Source: Gilliamella bombicola
GTDB lineage: Bacteria; Pseudomonadota; Gammaproteobacteria; Enterobacterales; Orbaceae
Length of the DNA: 62,661 nucleotides
NCBI RefSeq assembly: GCF_900094945.1
Contig: NZ_FMAQ01000012.1
Coordinates: 1 to 62,661, forward strand
Direction of reading: 5' to 3'
Part shown: positions 42,561-52,333 of the stretch, one piece after another
Layout: each line of letters begins with the position of its first letter
Numbering within the stretch: the stretch's first letter is position 1
Notes under the pieces: model-generated
The model's input: the letters and a program-made list of their open reading frames with translations, nothing else
Told to the model about the DNA's origin: nothing
Database searches by the model: none
Position numbers and translations under genes: made by a program

Positions 42561-43301
42561 TATTCTACACTCTTCATTAATCTTAATTAACTTGTAGGTA
42601 GAATCTTATTATTGATAAGTGATTATTTTAACAATGATGAATAATGGTACTTAACTAAATATTTTATATACGGTATTCATTATTTTATTTATGTTATTTT
42701 TGTTATTATTTTATGTGAAACCGATACTACTTAATCAACATCAATATAATACGCTAGGCAAAATATTAAATTAAAAGACACTAAATACTTTGCAAAAAAA
42801 CTAATTGTATAATTTATTGACATTGTTATTATCGTTAATTTGCAAACCGCTATATTTTACTGGTTTGGCAAATAAACTAAATCTTTATGCAACTGTTTAA
42901 AATAAACGTATTATCTAATTATAATGATTCTACTTACACTATTTTATTTTGACAAACTGTAATGTCTAACGCCATTGCTGCATTACAAGGATAAAATTAT
43001 CCCTCTCTATTATTAACGTTTAGGCAAAGGATAGCAAGAAAATTAAACTCGCTATTTTATAAACAATATAATTATCCATTTTTCTTATTTCTAATTAACC
43101 TTTACCAAATTATAAATAACTTATCTTAAGTCGCTTAAAATCTTATATTAAAACGGCGACTAATCTGAATCATTTTTACAAAACTTTCTCTTAATAATTA
43201 CCAAATTAAAAAAAACATTGATACGATTATGTATAGCCGAATTTAACCAGTATAATTATGATTAAATAACGTAATAATCTAAATATGAGATATATTTGTT
43301 T
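42561..43301 (-). promoter_or_regulatory. long gene-free region, probably including the rne 5' leader
   Basis: About 740 AT-rich bases separate the divergent rne and syd. In E. coli rne has a long structured 5' UTR through which RNase E controls its own mRNA, so part of this space is likely the same. I see a 12-base imperfect inverted repeat (ATTTGCAAACC 42838-42848 / GGTTTGGCAAAT 42862-42873) and a small palindrome GGATAAAATTATCC (about 42990-43003). No convincing gene or promoter was identified, and rluC, the usual divergent neighbour of rne, is missing. Confidence 0.45.
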
Positions 43302-43835
43302 ATGGACTCTACTGATAAAACTGCTTTACTTAATTTTACAACTCGCTGGATTGAGCAATTCAAATACGCCCCACAAAGTGAAGATCTCCATGCAATACCT
43401 TCACCTTGTATTTTAAAAACTGAAAAATTAACAGTATATTGGCAACCTTTCTTATTGGAACCGCCTCGAAACTTAACCATTATTGAACAAGTTATTGGCA
43501 TTAAATTACACCCAAGTACGCATATTTTTTACGGGACACAATACGCGGGCAATATGACAGCTAAGTTTAATGACACTAATTTAGTTTTGATCCAAGCTTG
43601 GAATGATGATGATTTTTCAAACTTAGAACAAAATTTAATTGCTCATTTATCTCAACAAAAAAGATTAAAACGCATACCGACTATTTTTATTGCCTCAACA
43701 GATGACAGCACTAAAATTATTTCAATAAACAACTTAACCGGCGAAGTAGTAAAAGAAGATTTAATTACAGGTGAATTAACAACCTTAACTAATGATTTGA
43801 TTTCATTTTTTAACCAAATTACTATTTTTCGCTAA
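43302..43835 (+). CDS. syd: SecY-interacting protein Syd
   Basis: Cytosolic-face protein that binds SecY and can act in quality control of SecYEG. 177 residues from the ATG at 43302; a TTG two codons earlier is possible. Matches E. coli Syd in the segments IPSPCIL, VYWQPFLLEPPRN, LVLIQAWNDDDF and NLIAHLSQQKRLKRIPTIFI (about 120-139). Stands alone upstream of aspC. Confidence 0.9.
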   Translation: MDSTDKTALLNFTTRWIEQFKYAPQSEDLHAIPSPCILKTEKLTVYWQPFLLEPPRNLTIIEQVIGIKLHPSTHIFYGTQYAGNMTAKFNDTNLVLIQAWNDDDFSNLEQNLIAHLSQQKRLKRIPTIFIASTDDSTKIISINNLTGEVVKEDLITGELTTLTNDLISFFNQITIFR

Positions 43836-43963
43836 ATATAGAAAAGCAAAAACTAAAGAAATTTTTACAAAAACACACTTATAGAATACCACTATCGAAA
43901 TTGTAACTTACAAAATAATGTGTATATAATGCGTTAACAGTCATTAGATCTGATAGGTGAATT

Positions 43964-45139
43964 ATGTTTGAATATTTAACAGCAGCTCCAGCCGATCCTA
44001 TTTTAGGGCTAGCCGATCTTTACAACAAAGACGAACGCACTAATAAAATCAATCTAAGTGTTGGTGTCTACAAAGATGAAACCACCAAAACACCTATTCT
44101 AGAAAGTGTAAAAAAAGCAGAACACTTCTTATTAACTAATGAAACCTCAAAAAGCTACTTAGCAATTGACGGTGACAATACCTTTAATACAGCAACCCAA
44201 CGACTACTTTTTGGTCATGAAAATGAACGAGCCAAAACCGCCCAAGCACCGGGGGGAACTGGCGCCTTACGAATTATGGCCGATTTTTTAGCTCGCAGAA
44301 CAAAAGTAAAACGCGTTTGGATCAGCAATCCATCTTGGCCAAATCATCGTAGTGTATTTCAAATGGCAGGGCTTGAAGTTCGTGAATACCAGTATTACGA
44401 TCCTCAGACTCACAGCCTTAATTTTGATGCAATGATGAATAACTTAAGCCTTGTTGCCTCAGGGGAAGCAGTGTTATTCCATGGTTGCTGTCACAACCCA
44501 ACGGGTATTGATCCAACCCCAGAACAATGGCAAGCTATCTCGGACTTAGCCTTAAAAAATGGTTGGTTACCACTATTTGACTTAGCTTACCAAGGCTTTG
44601 GACAGGGTTTAGAAGAAGACGTCTATGGGCTACGGTTATTTGCGAACAACCATCCTGAGCTTCTTATTGCTAGCTCATATTCTAAAAATTTTGGCTTATA
44701 TAATGAACGAGCTGGAGCATTTACCTTAATTGCTGCCAATGCTGAAATTGCCGATCGCGCTTTTAGTCAGGTAAAAACCATCATTCGAGCGAATTATTCT
44801 AACCCACCAGCCCATGGTGCTAAAATAGTCTCGTATATTTTAAACAATGATGAATTAAAAGAAGAATGGATTGATGAATTAACCAATATGCGCCAACGCA
44901 TCCACCGCATGCGCCAACTATTTGTGAAAACCTTACAAGATAAAGGTGCTAATCAAGATTTTAGTTTTATTGTCAAACAAAATGGCATGTTCTCGTTTAG
45001 CGGTTTAAGTGAAGAGCAAGTCCTAAAATTACGTAGCGATTACGGCATCTATATTGTTAATTCCGGACGTATCAATGTCGCAGGTATGACGTTAGATAAC
45101 ATGTCTAGACTTTGCGAATCAATTGTTCAAGTCCTATAA
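43964..45139 (+). CDS. aspC: aspartate aminotransferase
   Basis: PLP enzyme interconverting aspartate/2-oxoglutarate and oxaloacetate/glutamate. 391 residues; strongly E. coli AspC-like: [20 protein letters not shown], the PLP lysine in [15 protein letters not shown] (about 240), and [12 protein letters not shown]. TyrB is an alternative but the start and active-site surroundings fit AspC better. Followed by a strong terminator. Its product links aspartate to the fumarate/oxaloacetate pool fed by the next operon, though this may be coincidental. Confidence 0.95.
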
Positions 45140-45171
45140 AAATTGTTGTTTAAGTCACAAGAAAAACACTC

Positions 45172-45212
45172 AAATAACCAAAACAAAATTTTTGTTTTGG
45201 TTATTTTCTCTT
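45172..45212 (+). terminator. aspC terminator
   Basis: AATAACCAAAACAAAA pairs with TTTTGTTTTGGTTATT, followed by TTCTC, directly after aspC. The stem is long, AT-rich and nearly symmetrical, so it may act in both directions. Confidence 0.8.
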
Positions 45213-45283
45213 GGTTTGTTATAACTTGTTTATTTTATTTTTAATTATTATTAAGACGATAGCTAACCATATGAAGCAAACTA

Positions 45284-45331
45284 AAAAATAAAAAACAAAT
45301 AAAATCAATAGCTTTCCTGAACGTTTTTTTT
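45284..45331 (+). repeat. dispersed repeat, copy B
   Basis: Reads AAAACAAATAAAATCAATAG then CTTTCCTGAACG and a T8 run. Same orientation as copies A, C and D. It lies in the 390-base gap between aspC and the 2SC-type operon, downstream of the aspC terminator. Confidence 0.65.
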
Positions 45332-45435
45332 CAAAAGATTAACTTGTTTAGTGTTCCCTTCCTCACGACTTAAAAAGTATCCTGATTACGACTTAAGCAC
45401 AAAAATTACCCTTTTTCATTAAGCCTTTATTCCAA

Positions 45436-45464
45436 TTGGTTATATCCATAGACAAACAGATTAT
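45436..45464 (+). promoter_or_regulatory. candidate promoter of the 2SC-type operon
   Basis: TTGGTT (45436-45441), 17-base spacer, GATTAT (45459-45464), about 70 bases before the lyase start. Both boxes are imperfect. Two ACGACTTAA direct repeats (about 45366 and 45389) lie upstream and could be regulator sites; no known motif was recognised. Confidence 0.4.
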
Positions 45465-45531
45465 TAGACGATCTCCCAATAATTACTAATAATTATTTAA
45501 TAGAATAATTACCATGATTGAGGATAGTTGG

Positions 45532-46893
45532 GTGGCGTCACATATTTTAGATTTTTTAATTTTAGGCAATAACTTTGGTACGAGCGAAATGAGGGCGATC
45601 TGGTCAGAACAAAATCGCCTGCAAAAACAAGTAGAGGTCGAAGTTGCTTTAGCTCAAGCAGAAGGTGAGCTAGGTGTAATTCCCGCTGAAGCTGCCAATG
45701 CAATCATAGCCAAAGCCGATGCAACTAAACTATCAATTGAACACATTGCCGAAGAAGCGGCAAAGGCCAAACACTCGTTAATGTCGACCATTAACGCACT
45801 ACAAAAACAAGTAGGTGATGCCGGTCAATATATTCATTACGGGGCAACCACACAAGATATTGTCGATACTGCAACTGTTTTACAATTAAAACAATCATTT
45901 GTTGTCATTGAACGCGATAGCAAACAGGTGGCACTCGAACTAAAACGTTTAGCCAAACAGTATCAATATTTACCCATGGTTGGGCGTACGCATGGCATGC
46001 AAGCGCTTCCCACAACCTTTGGCTTTAAACTTGCAGTATGGTTAGATGAATTTATTCGGCACTTACAACGTTTAAGTGAAATCAAACAACGGGTATTAGT
46101 CGGTAATATTAGTGGCGCAATTTGTACGTATGCATCAATGGGCAAGCTAGGACCACAAGTTGAATCGCGAGCGTTAACGTTACTCGGACTAAATACCCCT
46201 AATATCGGTTGGCAAGCGGCGCGTGATCGTTTTTCTGAATATGCATCAGTCATCGGGCTAATCAGTGGCACATTAGGCAAAATAGGCAATGAATTTTACA
46301 ACTTGATGCGTACTGAAATTAACGAAGTTGAAGAACCCTTCTCAGCAGGAAAAATTGGTTCAACCACCATGCCACATAAACGCAACCCAGCAGCATTAGA
46401 AGGTTTAGCCAGTTTGACGGCTCCACTTTTAAAAAGCGTCGCATTAATTCACGAATCAATGAAAGTTGAACATGAACGCGATGCCATGAGTTGGCGTGCA
46501 GAATGGATCGCACTACCTGAAATTAACCTTTACATTTCAGCGCAACTACAAACAGCGTTAGCTGTACTTAAAGGTCTAAAAGTCAATTCTGATCGGATGT
46601 TAGCTAACTTATCACTACAAAATGGCTTGCTGTTATCAGAAAAAGTCATGTTCGAAATTGGTAAGCGATTAGGAAAACAAACTGCTCATCAACTGGTTTA
46701 TCAAAGCGCCATGAAAGCGTTTGAACAAAATCGACCATTTAAAGATATATTATTAGAAGATCCAAGTTTAAACAAAGAATTTACCGAATCCGAGCTTGAT
46801 ACTTGGTTAGATCCAATTAACTATCTTGGCTCTGCTCCTGAAAAAGTAGCACAAGTCATTCAATACGCTGAACAGTGTGGAGTATTAGCATGA
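45532..46893 (+). CDS. fumarase/aspartase-superfamily lyase, predicted S-(2-succino) lyase
   Basis: Predicted to eliminate fumarate from a succinylated substrate. The GTG at 45532 is chosen because GAGGA lies 7 bases upstream; the ATG at 45514 has no ribosome site. 453 residues. Superfamily motifs: HYGATTQDIVDTA (about 102-114), the GRTHGMQALPTTFG histidine (154), and the signature GSTTMPHKRNPAALEG (about 276-291) with the mobile catalytic Ser (277). It resembles adenylosuccinate lyase/PcaB-type enzymes, but no purine gene is near. Its partners (GNAT, amino-acid importer, MmgE/PrpD) match 2SC breakdown clusters in which such a lyase cleaves N-acetyl-2SC to fumarate and N-acetylcysteine. Iminodisuccinate-type lyase is the main alternative. 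Confidence 0.8.
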   Translation: MASHILDFLILGNNFGTSEMRAIWSEQNRLQKQVEVEVALAQAEGELGVIPAEAANAIIAKADATKLSIEHIAEEAAKAKHSLMSTINALQKQVGDAGQYIHYGATTQDIVDTATVLQLKQSFVVIERDSKQVALELKRLAKQYQYLPMVGRTHGMQALPTTFGFKLAVWLDEFIRHLQRLSEIKQRVLVGNISGAICTYASMGKLGPQVESRALTLLGLNTPNIGWQAARDRFSEYASVIGLISGTLGKIGNEFYNLMRTEINEVEEPFSAGKIGSTTMPHKRNPAALEGLASLTAPLLKSVALIHESMKVEHERDAMSWRAEWIALPEINLYISAQLQTALAVLKGLKVNSDRMLANLSLQNGLLLSEKVMFEIGKRLGKQTAHQLVYQSAMKAFEQNRPFKDILLEDPSLNKEFTESELDTWLDPINYLGSAPEKVAQVIQYAEQCGVLA

Positions 46894-47414
46894 GTTTTCG
46901 CTTAATGACTGATAAAGATATTCCAGCTTATCAAGCCCTACTGCATAGTGCTTATCAAGCCACAACTCAATTAGGCATTCATTTTGCCGCAGCAACAATC
47001 AAGCAATCGCAGATTGCTGAGCATATTGAGTCTAATGCCGTGTATTTATTTGAAAAAGATGGTGAACTACTATCAACTTTAAGCATTCGCTTTCCATGGG
47101 GCAATAACCCAGGACCTTATGGGTTACCCCATTTAGGTTGGTTTGCAACCGATCCACGTTATAAAGGTCAAGGCTATGGTAATGCATTATGGGATTTTGT
47201 TGAACAGCAAATTTTAATTAACCAACTAAAGTTACCTGCCGTCACGTTAGGCACCGCCGCAAATCATCCATGGCTTGCCCAGACGTATATAAATAAAGGC
47301 TATAAAAAAATAGGGCAAGCGGATTTAACTCCAGATCATACTACGCTCTATTTTGAAAAAATTTTAAATCATAAAAGCTATACCGAATGGAAAAAAAGGA
47401 GTAATAAACAATGA
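46890..47414 (+). CDS. GNAT acetyltransferase, predicted to N-acetylate 2SC
   Basis: GCN5-type acetyltransferase, 174 residues from the ATG at 46890 (MSFRLMTDKDIPAYQALLHS), which overlaps the lyase stop as ATGA. The acetyl-CoA loop is visible as TDPRYKGQGYGNALWDFVE (about 84-102), with hydrophobic strands before it. By position it corresponds to YxeL/SnaB of Bacillus, which acetylates S-(2-succino)cysteine before cleavage. Substrate is inferred from context only. Confidence 0.8.
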   Translation: MSFRLMTDKDIPAYQALLHSAYQATTQLGIHFAAATIKQSQIAEHIESNAVYLFEKDGELLSTLSIRFPWGNNPGPYGLPHLGWFATDPRYKGQGYGNALWDFVEQQILINQLKLPAVTLGTAANHPWLAQTYINKGYKKIGQADLTPDHTTLYFEKILNHKSYTEWKKRSNKQ

Positions 47415-48193
47415 AAAAAATAAGTACACTACTGTCCGCTCTTTTATTAACTAGCCTAACCTTAATGGGTTGTGATAATCAATCTAGCCATCAAGTCACA
47501 GAGCAAAATATTATTAAAGTAGGTTCTACAGGACAAAGCTACCCAAACGGTTATAAACAAGATGGCAAATTAGTCGGATTTGATGTTGAAGTTACCGAGG
47601 CGATTGCCAAAGAATTAGGCTATAAAGTCGAATGGAACATTGCCGAATTTGGTGGCTTAATGGGACAATTTGATTCTGGGCGGTTAGATACTATAGCCAA
47701 TGCGGTTGCAGTTACACCTGCTCGTCAAGCCAAATATGATTTTTCCAACACCTATAGCTTTTATGGTAGTCAAATTGTGACTCACAAAGATAACAATAAT
47801 ATTAATCAATTATCTGATTTTAAAGGCAAAACTATTGCTGGTGTGCTAGGCTCAAATCATATAAACAATCTAAAAAAAGCCTTTCCTAACAATGAAATCA
47901 CCATCAAGACCTATGAAACACGAGATGGTGCAATGTATGACACAGAGTATCAACGAGTTGATGGCTATGTTAATTCAAAACCGATATTACTGGCTGAAAT
48001 TAAGCGTAAAAATCTACCGTTCAAATTAGTGGGTGAACCCATTACTATTGAGCAAGTCGCATTTCCATTTAGTAAAGATGAAAAAGGTCAAGCACTGCGT
48101 GAAAAATTCAATCAAGCCATCGAAAAGTTACGCACTAATGGCACATTGAAAAATCTGGCAATTAAATATTTTGGCGAAGATATTACCTTATGA
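47411..48193 (+). CDS. amino-acid ABC transporter substrate-binding lipoprotein (YxeM-like)
   Basis: Periplasmic solute-binding protein of the polar amino-acid family, 260 residues, with a lipoprotein signal ending LMGC (Cys21). The mature part has VGSTGQSYPNGYKQDGKLVG, FDVEVTEAIAKEL and LDTIANAVAVTPARQAKYDF in the usual order. As far as I recall the Bacillus YxeM sequence, these (notably GxTGQSYP) resemble it closely. The ATG overlaps the GNAT stop (ATGA). It would deliver 2SC or a related amino acid to the permease. Confidence 0.85.
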   Translation: MKKISTLLSALLLTSLTLMGCDNQSSHQVTEQNIIKVGSTGQSYPNGYKQDGKLVGFDVEVTEAIAKELGYKVEWNIAEFGGLMGQFDSGRLDTIANAVAVTPARQAKYDFSNTYSFYGSQIVTHKDNNNINQLSDFKGKTIAGVLGSNHINNLKKAFPNNEITIKTYETRDGAMYDTEYQRVDGYVNSKPILLAEIKRKNLPFKLVGEPITIEQVAFPFSKDEKGQALREKFNQAIEKLRTNGTLKNLAIKYFGEDITL

Positions 48194-48861
48194 ATTTTAA
48201 TGTAAACTATTTTTTAAGTGTGTTTCCGCAGATATTGCCTTATCTGCCGGTTACCCTTTTTATTACCATCGTATCGATTATGTTTGCCATTATATTAGGG
48301 TTAGCTATTGCATTACTGCGTAGCAATAAAATAATCATTATCGATACTATTTTTGCACTGTTTATATCTCTGTTTAGAGGAATACCCTCCGTTGTTTTAC
48401 TGTTTATTATTTATTACGGATTACCGCAGATTTTTCCTGTTTTAAAACATATGGGGGCAACAACGGCAGCCATTATCTGCTTTAGTTTAAAATATTCCTC
48501 CTATTTAGCCGAAATTTTCCGAGCAAGTTTAGAATCGGTTGATCACGGGCAGAAAGAAGCAGGGCTAACAGTAGGTTTAAGTAAAATACAAGTTTACCGC
48601 GGTATTATACTGCCCCAAGCCATGGTCAATGCCTTACCGAACACCGGTAATATGTTCATCTCATTACTTAAAGATTCGTCTGTTGCCTTTTTTGTTGGCG
48701 TACAAGAACTATTAGCAGCAGGAAAAATGTTAACGGCTAACTCATTCCTCTACTTTGAAACCTATTTAGCTGTAGGCATTGTTTACTGGTTAACTGTTGT
48801 TATCTATTCTTGGATACAAAAACAGTTAGAGCAGAAACTCACGGCCCCCTATCATCGTTAA
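48190..48861 (+). CDS. amino-acid ABC transporter permease (YxeN-like)
   Basis: HisM/GlnP-type permease, 223 residues with about five transmembrane segments. The coupling loop EAGLTVGLSKIQVYRGIILP (about 121-140) and the early RGIPSVVLLFIIYYGLP stretch are typical of the family. Start overlaps the binding-protein stop by ATGA, as at the two previous junctions. Confidence 0.9.
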   Translation: MNFNVNYFLSVFPQILPYLPVTLFITIVSIMFAIILGLAIALLRSNKIIIIDTIFALFISLFRGIPSVVLLFIIYYGLPQIFPVLKHMGATTAAIICFSLKYSSYLAEIFRASLESVDHGQKEAGLTVGLSKIQVYRGIILPQAMVNALPNTGNMFISLLKDSSVAFFVGVQELLAAGKMLTANSFLYFETYLAVGIVYWLTVVIYSWIQKQLEQKLTAPYHR

Positions 48862-48872
48862 GGAGACGGGTT

Positions 48873-49625
48873 ATGATTACGGTATCACATTTATCTAAAC
48901 GCTTTGCTAATAATGAAGTTTTGAAAGAGATCAACCTAAACATTGAACAAGGCGAAGTGGTTGCAATTATTGGACCGTCAGGATCAGGCAAATCGACCTT
49001 ATTACGTTGCTTAAATTTATTAGAAAAACCAAACACCGGCACCATTCAAATTGGCACAGCAATGCTAGATGCTAAACATTATAGTAATAAAGAAGAAACC
49101 CATTTACGCAAGCAATCTGCAATGGTCTTTCAACACTATAATTTATTTAAAAATAAAACCGCATTAGAAAATATCACCTATCCATTAATTGTTGGACAAA
49201 AGATAGATAAAAAAGAGGCCAAACAACTTGGTCTATCATTATTAGAACGCGTTGGTATGTTACCTTACGCCACACAATATCCCATAACCTTATCTGGTGG
49301 TCAGCAACAGCGTGTTGCAATCGCAAGAGCACTTGCAGTCAGACCAAAAGTATTATTATTTGATGAGCCAACATCCGCACTTGATCCCGAGCGTGTACAC
49401 GAAGTACTACAAGTAATGCTACAGCTAGCTAAAGAACATATCACAATGATTATCGTAACCCACGAAATGGAGTTTGCTAAGTATGTTGCAGACCGAGTTA
49501 TTTTTATGGCAGATGGCGTAATTGTTGAACAAGGACCAGCAAAATCAATAATTGATAATCCACAAAATGAAATAACACAACGCTTTTTGCGCCAATTGAC
49601 CGATGAAATCGATTTTGAAATTTAA
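48873..49625 (+). CDS. amino-acid ABC transporter ATPase (YxeO-like)
   Basis: GlnQ/HisP-type ATPase, 250 residues from the ATG at 48873, preceded by AAGGAGA at 48860-48866; a longer frame from 48810 overlaps the permease and is rejected. Walker A GPSGSGKST (about 32-40), signature LSGGQQQR (about 139-146), Walker B VLLFDEPTSALD. Last gene of the five-gene operon, ending at a shared convergent terminator. Confidence 0.93.
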   Translation: MITVSHLSKRFANNEVLKEINLNIEQGEVVAIIGPSGSGKSTLLRCLNLLEKPNTGTIQIGTAMLDAKHYSNKEETHLRKQSAMVFQHYNLFKNKTALENITYPLIVGQKIDKKEAKQLGLSLLERVGMLPYATQYPITLSGGQQQRVAIARALAVRPKVLLFDEPTSALDPERVHEVLQVMLQLAKEHITMIIVTHEMEFAKYVADRVIFMADGVIVEQGPAKSIIDNPQNEITQRFLRQLTDEIDFEI

Positions 49626-49668
49626 CGATTAAAAACTGATTTAACCACAAAATGAGTTTTTAATCGTT
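49624..49668. terminator. bidirectional terminator between the 2SC-type operon and the MmgE/PrpD gene
   Basis: Fourteen-base perfect stem AACGATTAAAAACT / AGTTTTTAATCGTT with a 17-base loop. It starts at the ATPase stop codon and overlaps the last bases of the MmgE/PrpD gene, so it could serve both converging transcripts. Confidence 0.75.
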
Positions 49669-51025
49669 AAAGCTTTAAAAGATATGACAATAAAAATGTA
49701 TGCAGATCTAAACCGACCGCAAGCGCACGAATATCTTTCAATAAATTATCTGTGGTCTTTTGGTCACCTACGGCTTTGACCAACTTCAATGATAATTCTC
49801 GCTGACTGTATGGATTTTTTGGCGAACCTTTTGGAAGGTCAATTCTTTGGTTCAACTTTTCACCTGTACTATTAACAATCTCAACAACAACATAACGTTG
49901 ATTATACGCCTGTGGATGGGGGGTAAGTTGTATTTGATAGCTTCGTTTCATCTTCTGCATCAAATTTTTTATGCCATTTGCAATAGGTTTTGCTGAAAAC
50001 TGTTCAAAACTAAGTGGCAACCCTAAAAGAGTTAATGCTAAAACATACTCAGCCGAAAAACGCCCTTGTTCAGCAAGCAAAGGCATTTGATAAATTAACG
50101 CTGCATCACTTTGTGGTGGAGAAAAAAAGATAGTGATACTCTCAATCTTATCAACACTAAAGTTAGCATTCCGATAAAGCAATTGCCCCGCATCAGCAAT
50201 ATAAGCAGCAGCTGAACAATAAGAATAATTTTTAAACCATAATCCGGGATGCACAATCTTCCAAGTTTTACCCCAATGACTTAAATCAAAACGTGTATTA
50301 CCTTGTCCATAAATAGCCAAAAAACCTAATTTATCATCTAAAAAATCCTGATCGGCATGTATACCCGCTCTTAACCACTCAACCGCTTGTATGGCATGCT
50401 GGGCTGCTAGCCCAGCATGCAAAAACTTAATCGGCGTGCCCATTAACAAACGCATTCCCGATGCTTGAGTCGCAGCTAACGTTAATGCTTGTGATAAAAA
50501 AGGTTCATCATAGAGATAACAAATAGCCGCTGTTGCCGCAATCCCACCCAAAGTAATAGTTGCATGCCAACCTTTTTCATAATGCTGTGGATTAATGCTT
50601 TGTCCCAATAAGGCCATCACTTCGATACCAATAACATAAGCGGTTAAAAAACGCCGGCCATCAATTGTTTGCTCAGCATTATCTAATCGAACACTGGCAA
50701 TAAGTGCAGATAAAATAACGGCAGAGGGGTGACCGCGAACATCTGAATGTACATCATCATAATCTAAACAATGGGCTTGAAAACCATTAAGTAGCGCGGC
50801 TTGCCTTGCGCTAGCTAACTTTTTTTGACCAATTAGCCAAGCTCTGGCATTACCGCCTTCATCTGCTATCCATGCTAGCAATTTATGAACATCATCTTCA
50901 TGGCAAGCTTGTAAAGTGCAAGCAAAATAATCAGTTATCCCATTAATAGCACAATCAATAACTTGAGGGTCACTGATTATTGGCGTATTTCTGATTAAAA
51001 AACTTAACTGTTGACCTAAATTCAT
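49667..51025 (-). CDS. MmgE/PrpD family protein (YxeQ-like)
   Basis: Member of the family that holds 2-methylcitrate dehydratase, iminodisuccinate epimerase and cis-aconitate decarboxylase; 452 residues. Family landmarks: GNARAWLIGQKKLASARQAA near 74-93, LNGFQAHCLDYDDVHSDVRG with HPSA near 95-118, and PIKFLHAGLAAQHAIQAVEW near 197-216. It converges on the lyase-GNAT-ABC operon. A YxeQ-type member of this family accompanies 2SC breakdown genes in Bacillus; its step is not defined. It might epimerise or dehydrate the succinyl moiety. Without context it could be any family member. Confidence 0.85.
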   Translation of the reverse strand: MNLGQQLSFLIRNTPIISDPQVIDCAINGITDYFACTLQACHEDDVHKLLAWIADEGGNARAWLIGQKKLASARQAALLNGFQAHCLDYDDVHSDVRGHPSAVILSALIASVRLDNAEQTIDGRRFLTAYVIGIEVMALLGQSINPQHYEKGWHATITLGGIAATAAICYLYDEPFLSQALTLAATQASGMRLLMGTPIKFLHAGLAAQHAIQAVEWLRAGIHADQDFLDDKLGFLAIYGQGNTRFDLSHWGKTWKIVHPGLWFKNYSYCSAAAYIADAGQLLYRNANFSVDKIESITIFFSPPQSDAALIYQMPLLAEQGRFSAEYVLALTLLGLPLSFEQFSAKPIANGIKNLMQKMKRSYQIQLTPHPQAYNQRYVVVEIVNSTGEKLNQRIDLPKGSPKNPYSQRELSLKLVKAVGDQKTTDNLLKDIRALAVGLDLHTFLLSYLLKL

Positions 51026-51253
51026 GCAAAACTCTCAAACTCAGCAAAGTCGATAAGTGATTAGTGAAACTGGTTTACTTTGGAATAGCTAAAATAACGT
51101 ATAATTAGCCACAGGTTAAAGATTAAGTAGTTATATTCTAATAACCTAAAATCATAACGTATACGCCATTGATATAATCATTTTTAGCCATTATTTTATA
51201 TGTTAAAATACTTCCTACAAAAAATAATCAAATCAAAAATTTAACATCTTATT

Positions 51254-51736
51254 ATGTCAACTTGTTATATCGCCTTAGGCAGTAATCTTGAAGATCCATT
51301 GTCACAAGCCAATCGTGCAATTGCGGCATTAAAGCAGCTATCTAACACAACAGTTACGGCTATTTCTCCTTTTTACCGAAGCAAACCTCTTGGTCCACAA
51401 AACCAAAATGATTATCTTAATGCCGTCATAGAACTAACGACAAATTTATCTCCAATTGAACTACTTGACGAACTACAATCCATAGAAAAAGCGCAAGGTC
51501 GTGTACGTAAAGACAATCGATGGGGTGCTCGAACCTTAGATCTTGATATTTTATTGTATGACAACTTAGTACTAGAAAGTGAAAGGCTCACCGTTCCACA
51601 CTACCACATGAAAAACAGAGAATTTGTGCTCTACCCACTGTATGACATCAGTCCTGAACTTGTTTTACCAGATAACGATAAGCTGTACGACTTAGTAACT
51701 AAATGCCCTAAAAATGGATTAAAAAAGTGGGAATAG
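51254..51736 (+). CDS. folK: 2-amino-4-hydroxy-6-hydroxymethyldihydropteridine pyrophosphokinase
   Basis: HPPK of folate synthesis, 160 residues as in E. coli. Motifs: TCYIALGSNLEDP at the start, GPQNQNDYLNAVIEL (about 47-61) and the signature RWGARTLDLDILLYDN (about 88-103), which holds the Mg-binding Asp pair. In E. coli it follows pcnB at the end of dksA-gluQ-pcnB-folK; here it precedes dksA and pcnB is absent. Confidence 0.97.
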   Translation: MSTCYIALGSNLEDPLSQANRAIAALKQLSNTTVTAISPFYRSKPLGPQNQNDYLNAVIELTTNLSPIELLDELQSIEKAQGRVRKDNRWGARTLDLDILLYDNLVLESERLTVPHYHMKNREFVLYPLYDISPELVLPDNDKLYDLVTKCPKNGLKKWE

Positions 51737-51877
51737 CTACTTATCTTAATTAATAACATACAGTTGCACTATTTCGCTTATTTTTTGTACATAAAAAATA
51801 ATAAAAAAAATTTGCCAATAGCTAATTTATTGATATAGTTTACCGCTTGCAAATAATCTGTACTTAAGGGGATTGCT

Positions 51878-52333
51878 GTGAAAAAGGAAAAAAAGTTAAA
51901 TACATCTTCTCTTAGCCTGCTTTCAATTGCGGGGCTTGAGCCTTATAAAGAAAAACAAGGCGAGGAGTACATGAACCCTAAACAATTAAAACATTTTGAA
52001 TTGATATTAAAAGCATGGCTTACTCAATTACAAGATGAAATGGGGAAAACAGTTTCTCACATGCAAGATGAAGCTGCGAATTTTCCTGATCCAGCCGATC
52101 GAGCAACACAAGAAGAGGAATTTAGTTTAGAATTACGTGCTCGAGATAGAGAACGAAAACTGATCAAAAAAATCGAAAAAACATTAAAGAAAATTGAATC
52201 AGACGACTTTGGTTATTGTGAATCTTGTGGCGTTGAAATTGGCATTCGTCGCTTAGAAGCAAGACCAACAGCAGATTTATGTATCGATTGTAAAACACTT
52301 GCGGAACTTCGCGAAAAACAGATGGGCATGTAA
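51878..52333 (+). CDS. dksA: RNA polymerase-binding transcription factor DksA
   Basis: Secondary-channel factor that works with ppGpp, including at rRNA promoters. 151 residues with a GTG start preceded by AAGGGGAT. The coiled-coil tip acidic residues lie in [20 protein letters not shown] (about 69-88), and the four-Cys zinc finger [17 protein letters not shown] lies near 114-138. It is nearly identical to E. coli DksA over the second half. Confidence 0.98.

What the first reader, a model, noticed from the sequence alone, without database searches (positions are those of the whole stretch)
45436..51025. Predicted S-(2-succino)cysteine (2SC) breakdown locus, lyase version
Seen: a coupled operon of a fumarase/aspartase-superfamily lyase (GSTTMPHKRNP), a GNAT, and a YxeM/N/O-like importer with ATGA overlaps, converging on an MmgE/PrpD gene. 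Known: the Bacillus subtilis yxe cluster imports 2SC (YxeMNO), acetylates it (YxeL) and opens it with YxeK, with an MmgE/PrpD gene (YxeQ) present; in Enterococcus italicus and Dickeya dadantii an S-(2-succino) lyase replaces YxeK. Inferred: this locus recovers cysteine and fumarate from the damage product of fumarate and thiols. The gene set fits far better than purine synthesis.
Basis: partly seen in the sequence, partly recalled or inferred. Interest (0 to 1): 0.82.

Follow-up and report, generated by a model that had tools for sequence, protein, structure and literature searches.

The report
Bacterial locus recycling fumarate-damaged cysteine
A bee-gut-type bacterium carries a gene set that very probably imports a cysteine molecule damaged by fumarate, acetylates it and splits it back into a cysteine derivative and fumarate; the pathway type is already published, but a neighbouring gene of unknown role looks like the missing enzyme that flips the mirror form of the damaged molecule.

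Summary
At 45532-49625 an operon encodes a fumarase/aspartase-superfamily lyase, a GNAT and an ABC importer (three ATGA overlaps), converging on an MmgE/PrpD gene (49667-51025, minus). Of 80 named relatives, 78 have the GNAT nearby and 60 have it with all three transporter parts. No deacetylase (YxeP) lies in the locus; an unlinked M20 hydrolase is only a candidate. So this is a new member of a published pathway type, in a Gilliamella-like genome.

The less expected result is the MmgE/PrpD gene, of the YxeQ/'B. subtilis IRG1' group (function unknown). It keeps all seven iminodisuccinate-epimerase active-site residues and lacks a cis-aconitate-decarboxylase histidine. In 197 genomes of the order it occurs in exactly the eight with a full-length 2SL, once about 457 kb away. 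I propose that it epimerises the succinyl carbon of 2SC or N-acetyl-2SC so that both diastereomers can be cleaved. Untested.

The parts
45427..45496 (+). conserved upstream block (probable promoter/operator of the lyase operon)
   Evidence: Conserved in the window and 11 Gilliamella loci while sequence further upstream is not. MetJ-box reading tested and not supported. No Rfam match in 43000-52000.
45532..46893 (+). S-(2-succino) lyase (2SL), GTG start; the mechanical ORF begins at ATG 45514
   Evidence: Inside the 2SL clade; 63% identity to E. italicus DSM 15952 2SL, 75% to Dickeya oryzae; start.
46890..47414 (+). GNAT acetyltransferase, YxeL-like (predicted 2SC N-acetyltransferase); overlaps the lyase by ATGA
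   Evidence: Pfam Acetyltransf_1; homologue near 2SL in 78 of 80 relatives, 41% to E. italicus and 47% to D. oryzae.
47411..48193 (+). periplasmic binding protein, YxeM-like; ATGA overlap with the GNAT
   Evidence: SBP_bac_3; best NCBIfam hit is the cystine-binding protein model, below its cut-off (147 of 312 bits); 61% to E. italicus.
48190..48861 (+). ABC permease, YxeN-like; ATGA overlap with the binding protein
   Evidence: BPD_transp_1; cystine permease model 163 of 300 bits; 60% to E. italicus.
48873..49625 (+). ABC ATPase, YxeO-like, preceded by AAGGAG
   Evidence: ABC_tran; TcyN model 310 of 406 bits; 60% to E. italicus.
49626..49666 (.). 12-nt inverted repeat between the convergent genes, possible two-way terminator
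   Evidence: Read by eye; not listed by the terminator scan, whose stem rule needs 3 G-C pairs.
49667..51025 (-). MmgE/PrpD protein, YxeQ/'bsIRG1' type; proposed S-(2-succino) epimerase
   Evidence: Top PDB match 7bra, 327 bits; IDS-epimerase 150; cis-aconitate decarboxylase (CAD) entries 67-73. All seven IDS-epimerase residues kept. Tree. AF2 model pLDDT 94.2, TM 0.90 to 7bra and 0.87 to 2hp0.

Best explanation
This is a lyase-type 2SC salvage locus of a Gilliamella-like gut bacterium. The YxeMNO-like importer brings in S-(2-succino)cysteine; the GNAT N-acetylates it to 2SNAC; the lyase eliminates fumarate by breaking the C-S bond and releases N-acetylcysteine; an M20 amidohydrolase coded elsewhere removes the acetyl group to give cysteine. 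The lyase's family is shown by phylogeny. Its reaction, the import and the acetylation are inferred from homology to, and gene neighbourhood shared with, the loci of characterised enzymes. The deacetylation step is inferred only. The convergent MmgE/PrpD gene belongs to the same system and most likely acts on the same dicarboxylate, as an epimerase (see novel case).
For: Lyase inside the 2SL clade, 100/99, with E. italicus DSM 15952 and two Dickeya species; 6 PurB, 5 ArgH, 3 PcaB and 3 Fum/Asp rows outside (labels). The genome has its own PurB (793 bits, model cut-off 446) and ArgH (853, cut-off 657). Neighbourhoods of 80 named 2SL loci: by a loose count GNAT 78, ATPase 69, permease 67, binding protein 66, M20 58, MmgE/PrpD 52; by a stricter count (identity floors, within 7 kb) GNAT 78, permease 61, ATPase 60, binding protein 60, all four together 60, M20 57, MmgE/PrpD 51. 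Published tests: 2SL genes of E. italicus DSM 15952 and D. dadantii complement a B. subtilis yxeK mutant and the enzymes cleave 2SNAC to fumarate and N-acetylcysteine (PMC9706529, text parts 1-4 of 6 read). In 21 genus genomes GNAT and MmgE are present in the same 17 and absent from the same 4 as the lyase.
Against: No deacetylase gene in the locus. The best genomic candidate (L004) is 42% identical to the E. italicus cluster M20, against 55% for D. oryzae's, and it also occurs in genomes without the locus. Lyases of this family have many substrates. The TIGR00928 purB model scores the window lyase above cut-off (395 against 326); it does the same to the E. italicus 2SL (368), and true PurB rows score 487-603. 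D. dadantii itself was not among the loci. 20 of 80 related loci lack a full YxeMNO-like set by the stricter count. 8 of 34 same-genus genomes lack the lyase, one holds it in pieces, one in part and one with an internal stop.
Confidence: 0.88

Rival explanations
1. The lyase is a second adenylosuccinate lyase (PurB), as current annotation of its Pantoea relatives says.
For: TIGR00928 purB above cut-off; Pantoea relatives are annotated purB.
Against: A separate gamma-type PurB exists; the lyase lies outside PurB in the tree; the E. italicus 2SL also passes the purB model; no purine genes in the operon.
Confidence: 0.02
2. The operon handles a related S- or N-succino compound, or another S-alkyl cysteine, rather than 2SC itself, for example one that bees or their diet supply.
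For: 2SL enzymes act on several small thiols in vitro (PMC9706529); the binding protein is only generic cystine-type; the pathway's deacetylase is not linked here.
Against: Same clade as characterised-strain 2SL and the same YxeL/YxeMNO set.
Confidence: 0.08
3. The MmgE/PrpD neighbour is a cis-aconitate decarboxylase (IRG1), as the 7BRA depositors named its B. subtilis relative, or a 2-methylcitrate dehydratase, and is unrelated to the operon.
For: Same fold as CAD and PrpD; the PDB name is IRG1.
Against: CAD entries score 67-73 bits against 327 for 7bra and 150 for IDS epimerase. CAD His277, named as important in PMC7347537 (passages), aligns with Cys270 here, a column invariant in 16 of 16 relatives. 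PMC12290011 (passages) says bsIRG1 is not in the CAD clusters and likely has another, unknown reaction. In 197 genomes it follows the full-length lyase exactly.
Confidence: 0.06

Closest known systems
Lyase-type yxe (scm) locus of Enterococcus italicus DSM 15952 (2SL, UniProt E6LDH5 in PMC9706529)
   Same: 2SL 63%, GNAT 41%, binding protein 61%, permease 60%, ATPase 60%, MmgE/PrpD 42% identity, with the lyase-GNAT-binding protein-permease-ATPase order the same
   Different: E. italicus has the M20 deacetylase-type gene in the cluster and MmgE/PrpD upstream on the same strand; the window has no M20 and MmgE/PrpD is convergent
Dickeya lyase-type locus (D. dadantii characterised; D. oryzae and D. 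undicola examined here)
   Same: in the closest sister group of the Orbaceae lyases, 74-75% identity
   Different: has linked M20; the MmgE/PrpD gene of D. oryzae is elsewhere in its genome
B. subtilis yxe/scm operon (YxeK, L, MNO, P, Q)
   Same: importer, acetyltransferase and YxeQ-type gene
   Different: B. subtilis opens 2SNAC with the O2-requiring monooxygenase YxeK; here a lyase (PMC9706529)
Iminodisuccinate epimerase (PDB 2HP0/2HP3)
   Same: all seven listed active-site residues and fold; partner lyase recalled, not checked
   Different: 26% identity in the structural match; substrate is an N-succino, not an S-succino, compound

Membership tests
S-(2-succino) lyase (2SL) | Clusters with characterised 2SL to the exclusion of PurB, ArgH, PcaB, fumarase/aspartase | tested here: met
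   30-row clade, support 100/99; E. italicus DSM 15952 gene included, D. dadantii represented by two other Dickeya
S-(2-succino) lyase (2SL) | Lyase class I fold with the GSxxMPxKxNP loop | tested here: met
   Pfam PF00206 162.6 bits and PF10397; GSTTMPHKRNP in the ORF
S-(2-succino) lyase (2SL) | Cleaves 2SNAC to fumarate and N-acetylcysteine | not testable with these tools
   needs enzyme assay
yxe locus as defined in PMC9706529 (at least 3 of YxeK, YxeL, YxeMNO, YxeP, YxeQ clustered) | YxeL-like, YxeMNO-like and YxeQ-like genes clustered | tested here: met
   compared with the E. italicus locus, not directly with the B. subtilis genes except 7bra
yxe locus | YxeP deacetylase in the cluster | tested here: not met
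   absent from the window locus and from the fetched DNA of 12 of 12 Gilliamella loci, Zophobihabitans and Orbaceae ESL0721
Adenylosuccinate lyase (PurB) | Groups with PurB; sole PurB of the genome | tested here: not met
YxeQ / bsIRG1 group of MmgE/PrpD | Clusters with 7bra and 2SL-linked MmgE/PrpD | tested here: met
   26-row clade, 100/99: 25 rows of the cluster group (window included) plus 7bra; that 7bra is YxeQ is inferred from this and a recalled length of 445 aa
Two-base MmgE/PrpD epimerases (IDS epimerase, methylsuccinate isomerase) | Catalytic His and Tyr plus conserved carboxylate-binding residues | tested here: met
   H85 D88 H99 Y149 H154 K200 K265 match H85 D88 H99 Y145 H150 K198 K266. 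Tyr also occurs in 15 of 33 background rows, so it is not specific
Two-base MmgE/PrpD epimerases | Epimerase activity | not testable with these tools
   needs enzyme assay
cis-Aconitate decarboxylase | His277 (human numbering) | tested here: not met
   Cys270 at that place in the pairwise alignment

The most novel reading that the evidence does not exclude
The orphan YxeQ family, including the gene at 49667-51025 and the B. subtilis protein deposited as 'IRG1' (7BRA), is an S-(2-succino) epimerase. It inverts the succinyl C2 of 2SC or 2SNAC by a two-base His99/Tyr149 mechanism, so that the mirror-form adduct, which arises because fumarate adds to thiols without an enzyme, can be cleaved by the stereospecific lyase (or by YxeK). 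Lyase plus epimerase would be the S-analogue of the iminodisuccinate lyase/epimerase pair and would supply the missing function of the yxe/scm operon.
Probability: 0.5. Interest if true: 0.72.

Novelty: new member of a known kind. Interest (0 to 1): 0.5.

Why it matters
2SC is a marker of fumarate build-up in diabetes, obesity and certain cancers (PMC9706529 abstract), so complete routes for undoing it are of interest. The locus puts the version that needs no monooxygenase in what looks like a bee-gut symbiont. The larger gain is a specific, testable function for YxeQ, listed with 'unknown function' in the 2022 paper, which also questions the label of a deposited structure (7BRA).

Tried and rejected
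PurB, PcaB and ArgH readings of the lyase: rejected by the tree and, for PurB and ArgH, by separate genes in the genome.

MetJ boxes in the conserved upstream block (tandem AGAC octamers): best scores are no better than random stretches of the same loci (share of random stretches as good: 0.095 to 1.0 over 24 loci and two array lengths); rejected. A CysB-type site is only a recalled resemblance and was not tested. Rfam: 0 matches at 43000-52000. Sigma-70-like sites: 16 found against 22.1 expected, so uninformative.

L004 as a dedicated YxeP: homologous, but its close relatives (80-94%) are found also in 3 genus genomes without the locus (G006, G009, G015), while G004, which has the locus, and G011, which lacks it, have only homologues of about 40%; left as candidate only.

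Rows dropped or weak: one search kept the best 80 of 553 relatives, so the sample leans to close relatives, and 12 of the 80 are Gilliamella. One search counts ORFs of at least 100 aa with 50% query cover inside the fetched DNA and so includes unrelated ABC systems (identities down to 23%); one search is the stricter recount; some loci are cut by contig ends. One search used a mis-framed GNAT query, corrected. Of 52 MmgE/PrpD genes near 2SL-clade lyases, 48 keep all seven residues; exceptions are L114 (Val), L122 and L123 (Ala) at the Tyr column and L106, whose ORF may have been picked wrongly. The tree used 36 of those 52 plus the window, left out L106, and dropped 7 of 33 background rows as mis-picked or odd in length; L114's gene falls outside the YxeQ clade there. 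The tree used 30 of the 2SL rows, not all.

The E. coli plasmid fragment (L046) was seen only as an annotation table and not read through.
Full report
What is there. The region 45532-51025 holds six open genes: a Lyase_1/ADSL_C lyase, a GNAT, a family-3 binding protein, a permease, an ABC ATPase and, convergent, an MmgE/PrpD protein. Lyase/GNAT, GNAT/binding protein and binding protein/permease overlap by ATGA; the ATPase follows the permease after 11 bases with AAGGAG. The lyase start is most likely GTG 45532: in the window and 11 aligned Gilliamella loci the GTG is in 12 of 12 rows, ATG 45514 in 6 of 12. Only roughly the last 100 bases upstream are well conserved. The closest named relative is Gilliamella mensalis (lyase 98%).

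Lyase identity. NCBIfam gives a mixed answer: purB TIGR00928 above cut-off (395 against 326), PRK08937, XcbD and PcaB models below theirs. The E. italicus DSM 15952 2SL shows the same pattern, including purB above cut-off, so passing that model does not separate the two; true PurB rows score 487-603 on it. The whole genome holds three Lyase_1 genes: ArgH, a gamma-type PurB and this one. In a maximum-likelihood tree of 51 rows the window lies in a 30-row 2SL clade (100/99), nearest to Gilliamella and other Orbaceae, then Dickeya/Pectobacterium/Brenneria (96/93); E. italicus is in the same clade; the 17 rows of PurB, ArgH, PcaB and Fum/Asp (labels supported) are outside; Proteus and Variovorax lyases at 42-46% are next. 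D. dadantii E0SKP1 itself was not fetched; D. oryzae and D. undicola stand for it.

Neighbourhood. Around 80 named 2SL relatives (best 80 of 553) a loose count finds a GNAT like the window's in 78, ATPase 69, permease 67, binding protein 66, M20 hydrolase 58, MmgE/PrpD 52 and an FMN monooxygenase 11. That count lets in unrelated ABC systems; with identity floors and a 7-kb limit it is GNAT 78, permease 61, ATPase 60, binding protein 60, all four together 60, M20 57, MmgE/PrpD 51, FMN 10. PMC9706529 (text parts 1-4 of 6 read; find passages) defines the yxe locus as at least three of YxeK, L, MNO, P, Q and shows by complementation and assay that E. italicus and D. dadantii 2SL cleave 2SNAC. By that definition the window qualifies with L-, MNO- and Q-like genes. 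No linked YxeP is seen in the window, in the fetched DNA of 12 Gilliamella loci, or in two other Orbaceae. The genome has seven M20 hydrolases; L004 is the closest to cluster M20s (42% to E. italicus) but is not tied to the locus. PMC12757645 (part 1 of 6 and find passages) reports three N-acetylcysteine deacetylases with redundant roles in B. subtilis, so an unlinked one is plausible.

Genus pattern. 26 of 34 same-genus genomes have the lyase (one in pieces, one partial, one with an internal stop) and 8 lack it. In the 21 genus genomes examined in all three searches, counting the window's own, lyase, GNAT and MmgE/PrpD are present together in 17 and absent together in 4. Adjacency could explain this alone.

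The MmgE/PrpD partner. This is the only MmgE/PrpD match in the window's genome, and the E. italicus and Zophobihabitans genomes likewise have one, beside 2SL. Solved-structure search: 7bra ('Bacillus subtilis IRG1') 327 bits, IDS epimerase 150, CAD 67-73; the linked genes of E. italicus and Neobacillus niacini give the same order. The predicted structure (pLDDT 94.2) matches 7bra at TM 0.90 and IDS epimerase at 0.86-0.87, then CAD at 0.84-0.87 and 2-methylcitrate dehydratases lower, so fold alone does not decide. In the tree the window gene lies in a 26-row clade of 25 rows of the linked group (itself included) plus 7bra (100/99); IDS epimerase branches just outside a 39-row group (88/81, moderate) that also holds two unlinked genes, one of them D. 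oryzae's. The IDS-epimerase residues named in PMC12290011 (H85, D88, H99, H150, K198, K266 and Tyr145; passages) are all kept in the window gene and 7bra, and in 48 of 52 linked genes; in 33 background MmgE/PrpD rows the Tyr is present in 15. Human CAD His277 corresponds to Cys270. PMC7347537 (passages and one section) states that both IDS-epimerase bases are conserved in bsIRG1 and that key mammalian residues are not; the passages I saw report docking and no activity assay of bsIRG1, and PMC12290011 says there is no evidence of enzymatic activity.

Co-occurrence. In one sample of 197 genomes of the order, a full-length 2SL-type lyase (773.8 bits or more) is found in 8 and a YxeQ-type MmgE/PrpD (E below 1e-60) in exactly the same 8 (Fisher p 2e-14, not corrected for kinship: 6 of the 8 are one genus, so three lineages). 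G028, with a broken lyase, has no such gene; G299 has a 504-bit intermediate lyase and none either. In G254 the two genes are about 457 kb apart. Of 18 genomes chosen because their 2SL locus shows no MmgE/PrpD (18 of the 28 such loci), 14 carry one outside the fetched stretch (12 of 12 Enterobacterales, one Liquorilactobacillus, one Bacillus whose 2SL lies near a contig end); Niallia taxi and three Paenibacillus do not. So the partner is usual, not obligatory. In a phylum sample MmgE/PrpD of any type was over cut-off in 19 of 80 genomes.

Mechanism proposed. Recalled chemistry, not tested: fumarate adds to thiols without an enzyme and so gives both configurations at the succinyl carbon, while superfamily lyases eliminate one. 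A two-base epimerase would let the pathway use both, as IDS epimerase interconverts IDS isomers (PMC7347537). This would also fit YxeK loci, which break the same bond. Known MmgE/PrpD substrates share a 1,4-dicarboxylate (PMC12290011), and 2SC has one. Whether 2SC or 2SNAC is the substrate is open. I found no paper that proposes this: searches and finds; two papers that I tried by DOI (recalled as the 2018 B. subtilis discovery and the 2022 YxeK mechanism) are not held, so print elsewhere is not excluded.

Verdict. The locus is an ordinary but well-supported new member of a published pathway; the YxeQ proposal is the part worth following.

Noticed in passing
L045:7001-9818 (Proteus mirabilis), L046 (E. 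coli plasmid, annotation only): A second lyase group, 42% identical to the window's, sits next to a different MmgE/PrpD gene that has His instead of Tyr at the second-base position and is outside the YxeQ clade; near it are what I read as PLP-enzyme and LysR-type genes. Possibly another functional pair.
   Followed up: partly
window 45427-45496: Block TTATTCC..TTATATC.ATAGAC...TATTAGACG, largely conserved upstream of the lyase in the window and 11 Gilliamella loci; looks like an operator, possibly for a sulfur regulator (CysB resemblance is recalled, untested).
   Followed up: partly
L041, L042 (Pantoea plasmids), TIGR00928 purB model: 2SL-clade genes are annotated 'purB adenylosuccinate lyase' in these public plasmid records, and the purB model passes the window, E. 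italicus and Dickeya 2SLs; likely misannotation.
   Followed up: yes
L192:7019-8419 (Dickeya oryzae): YxeQ-type gene standing apart from the 2SL cluster, between what I read as an acnB-like gene and a hydrolase-like gene, with an lpd-like gene beyond.
   Followed up: yes
L043, L098, L101, L103: Some Bacillaceae clusters carry both 2SL and an FMN monooxygenase-like gene behind the M20 gene, so the lyase and a YxeK-like enzyme can co-exist or act on different adducts.
   Followed up: no
L108: A contig labelled Aggregatibacter actinomycetemcomitans carries a 2SL locus closest to Orbaceae ones (75% lyase); horizontal transfer or misassignment.
   Followed up: no
G028, G034 and G020: Lyase in pieces (G028) or with an internal stop (G034) in two same-genus genomes, an extra partial copy in G020, and no copy in eight of 34: the locus seems to be decaying or being lost in parts of the genus.
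   Followed up: no
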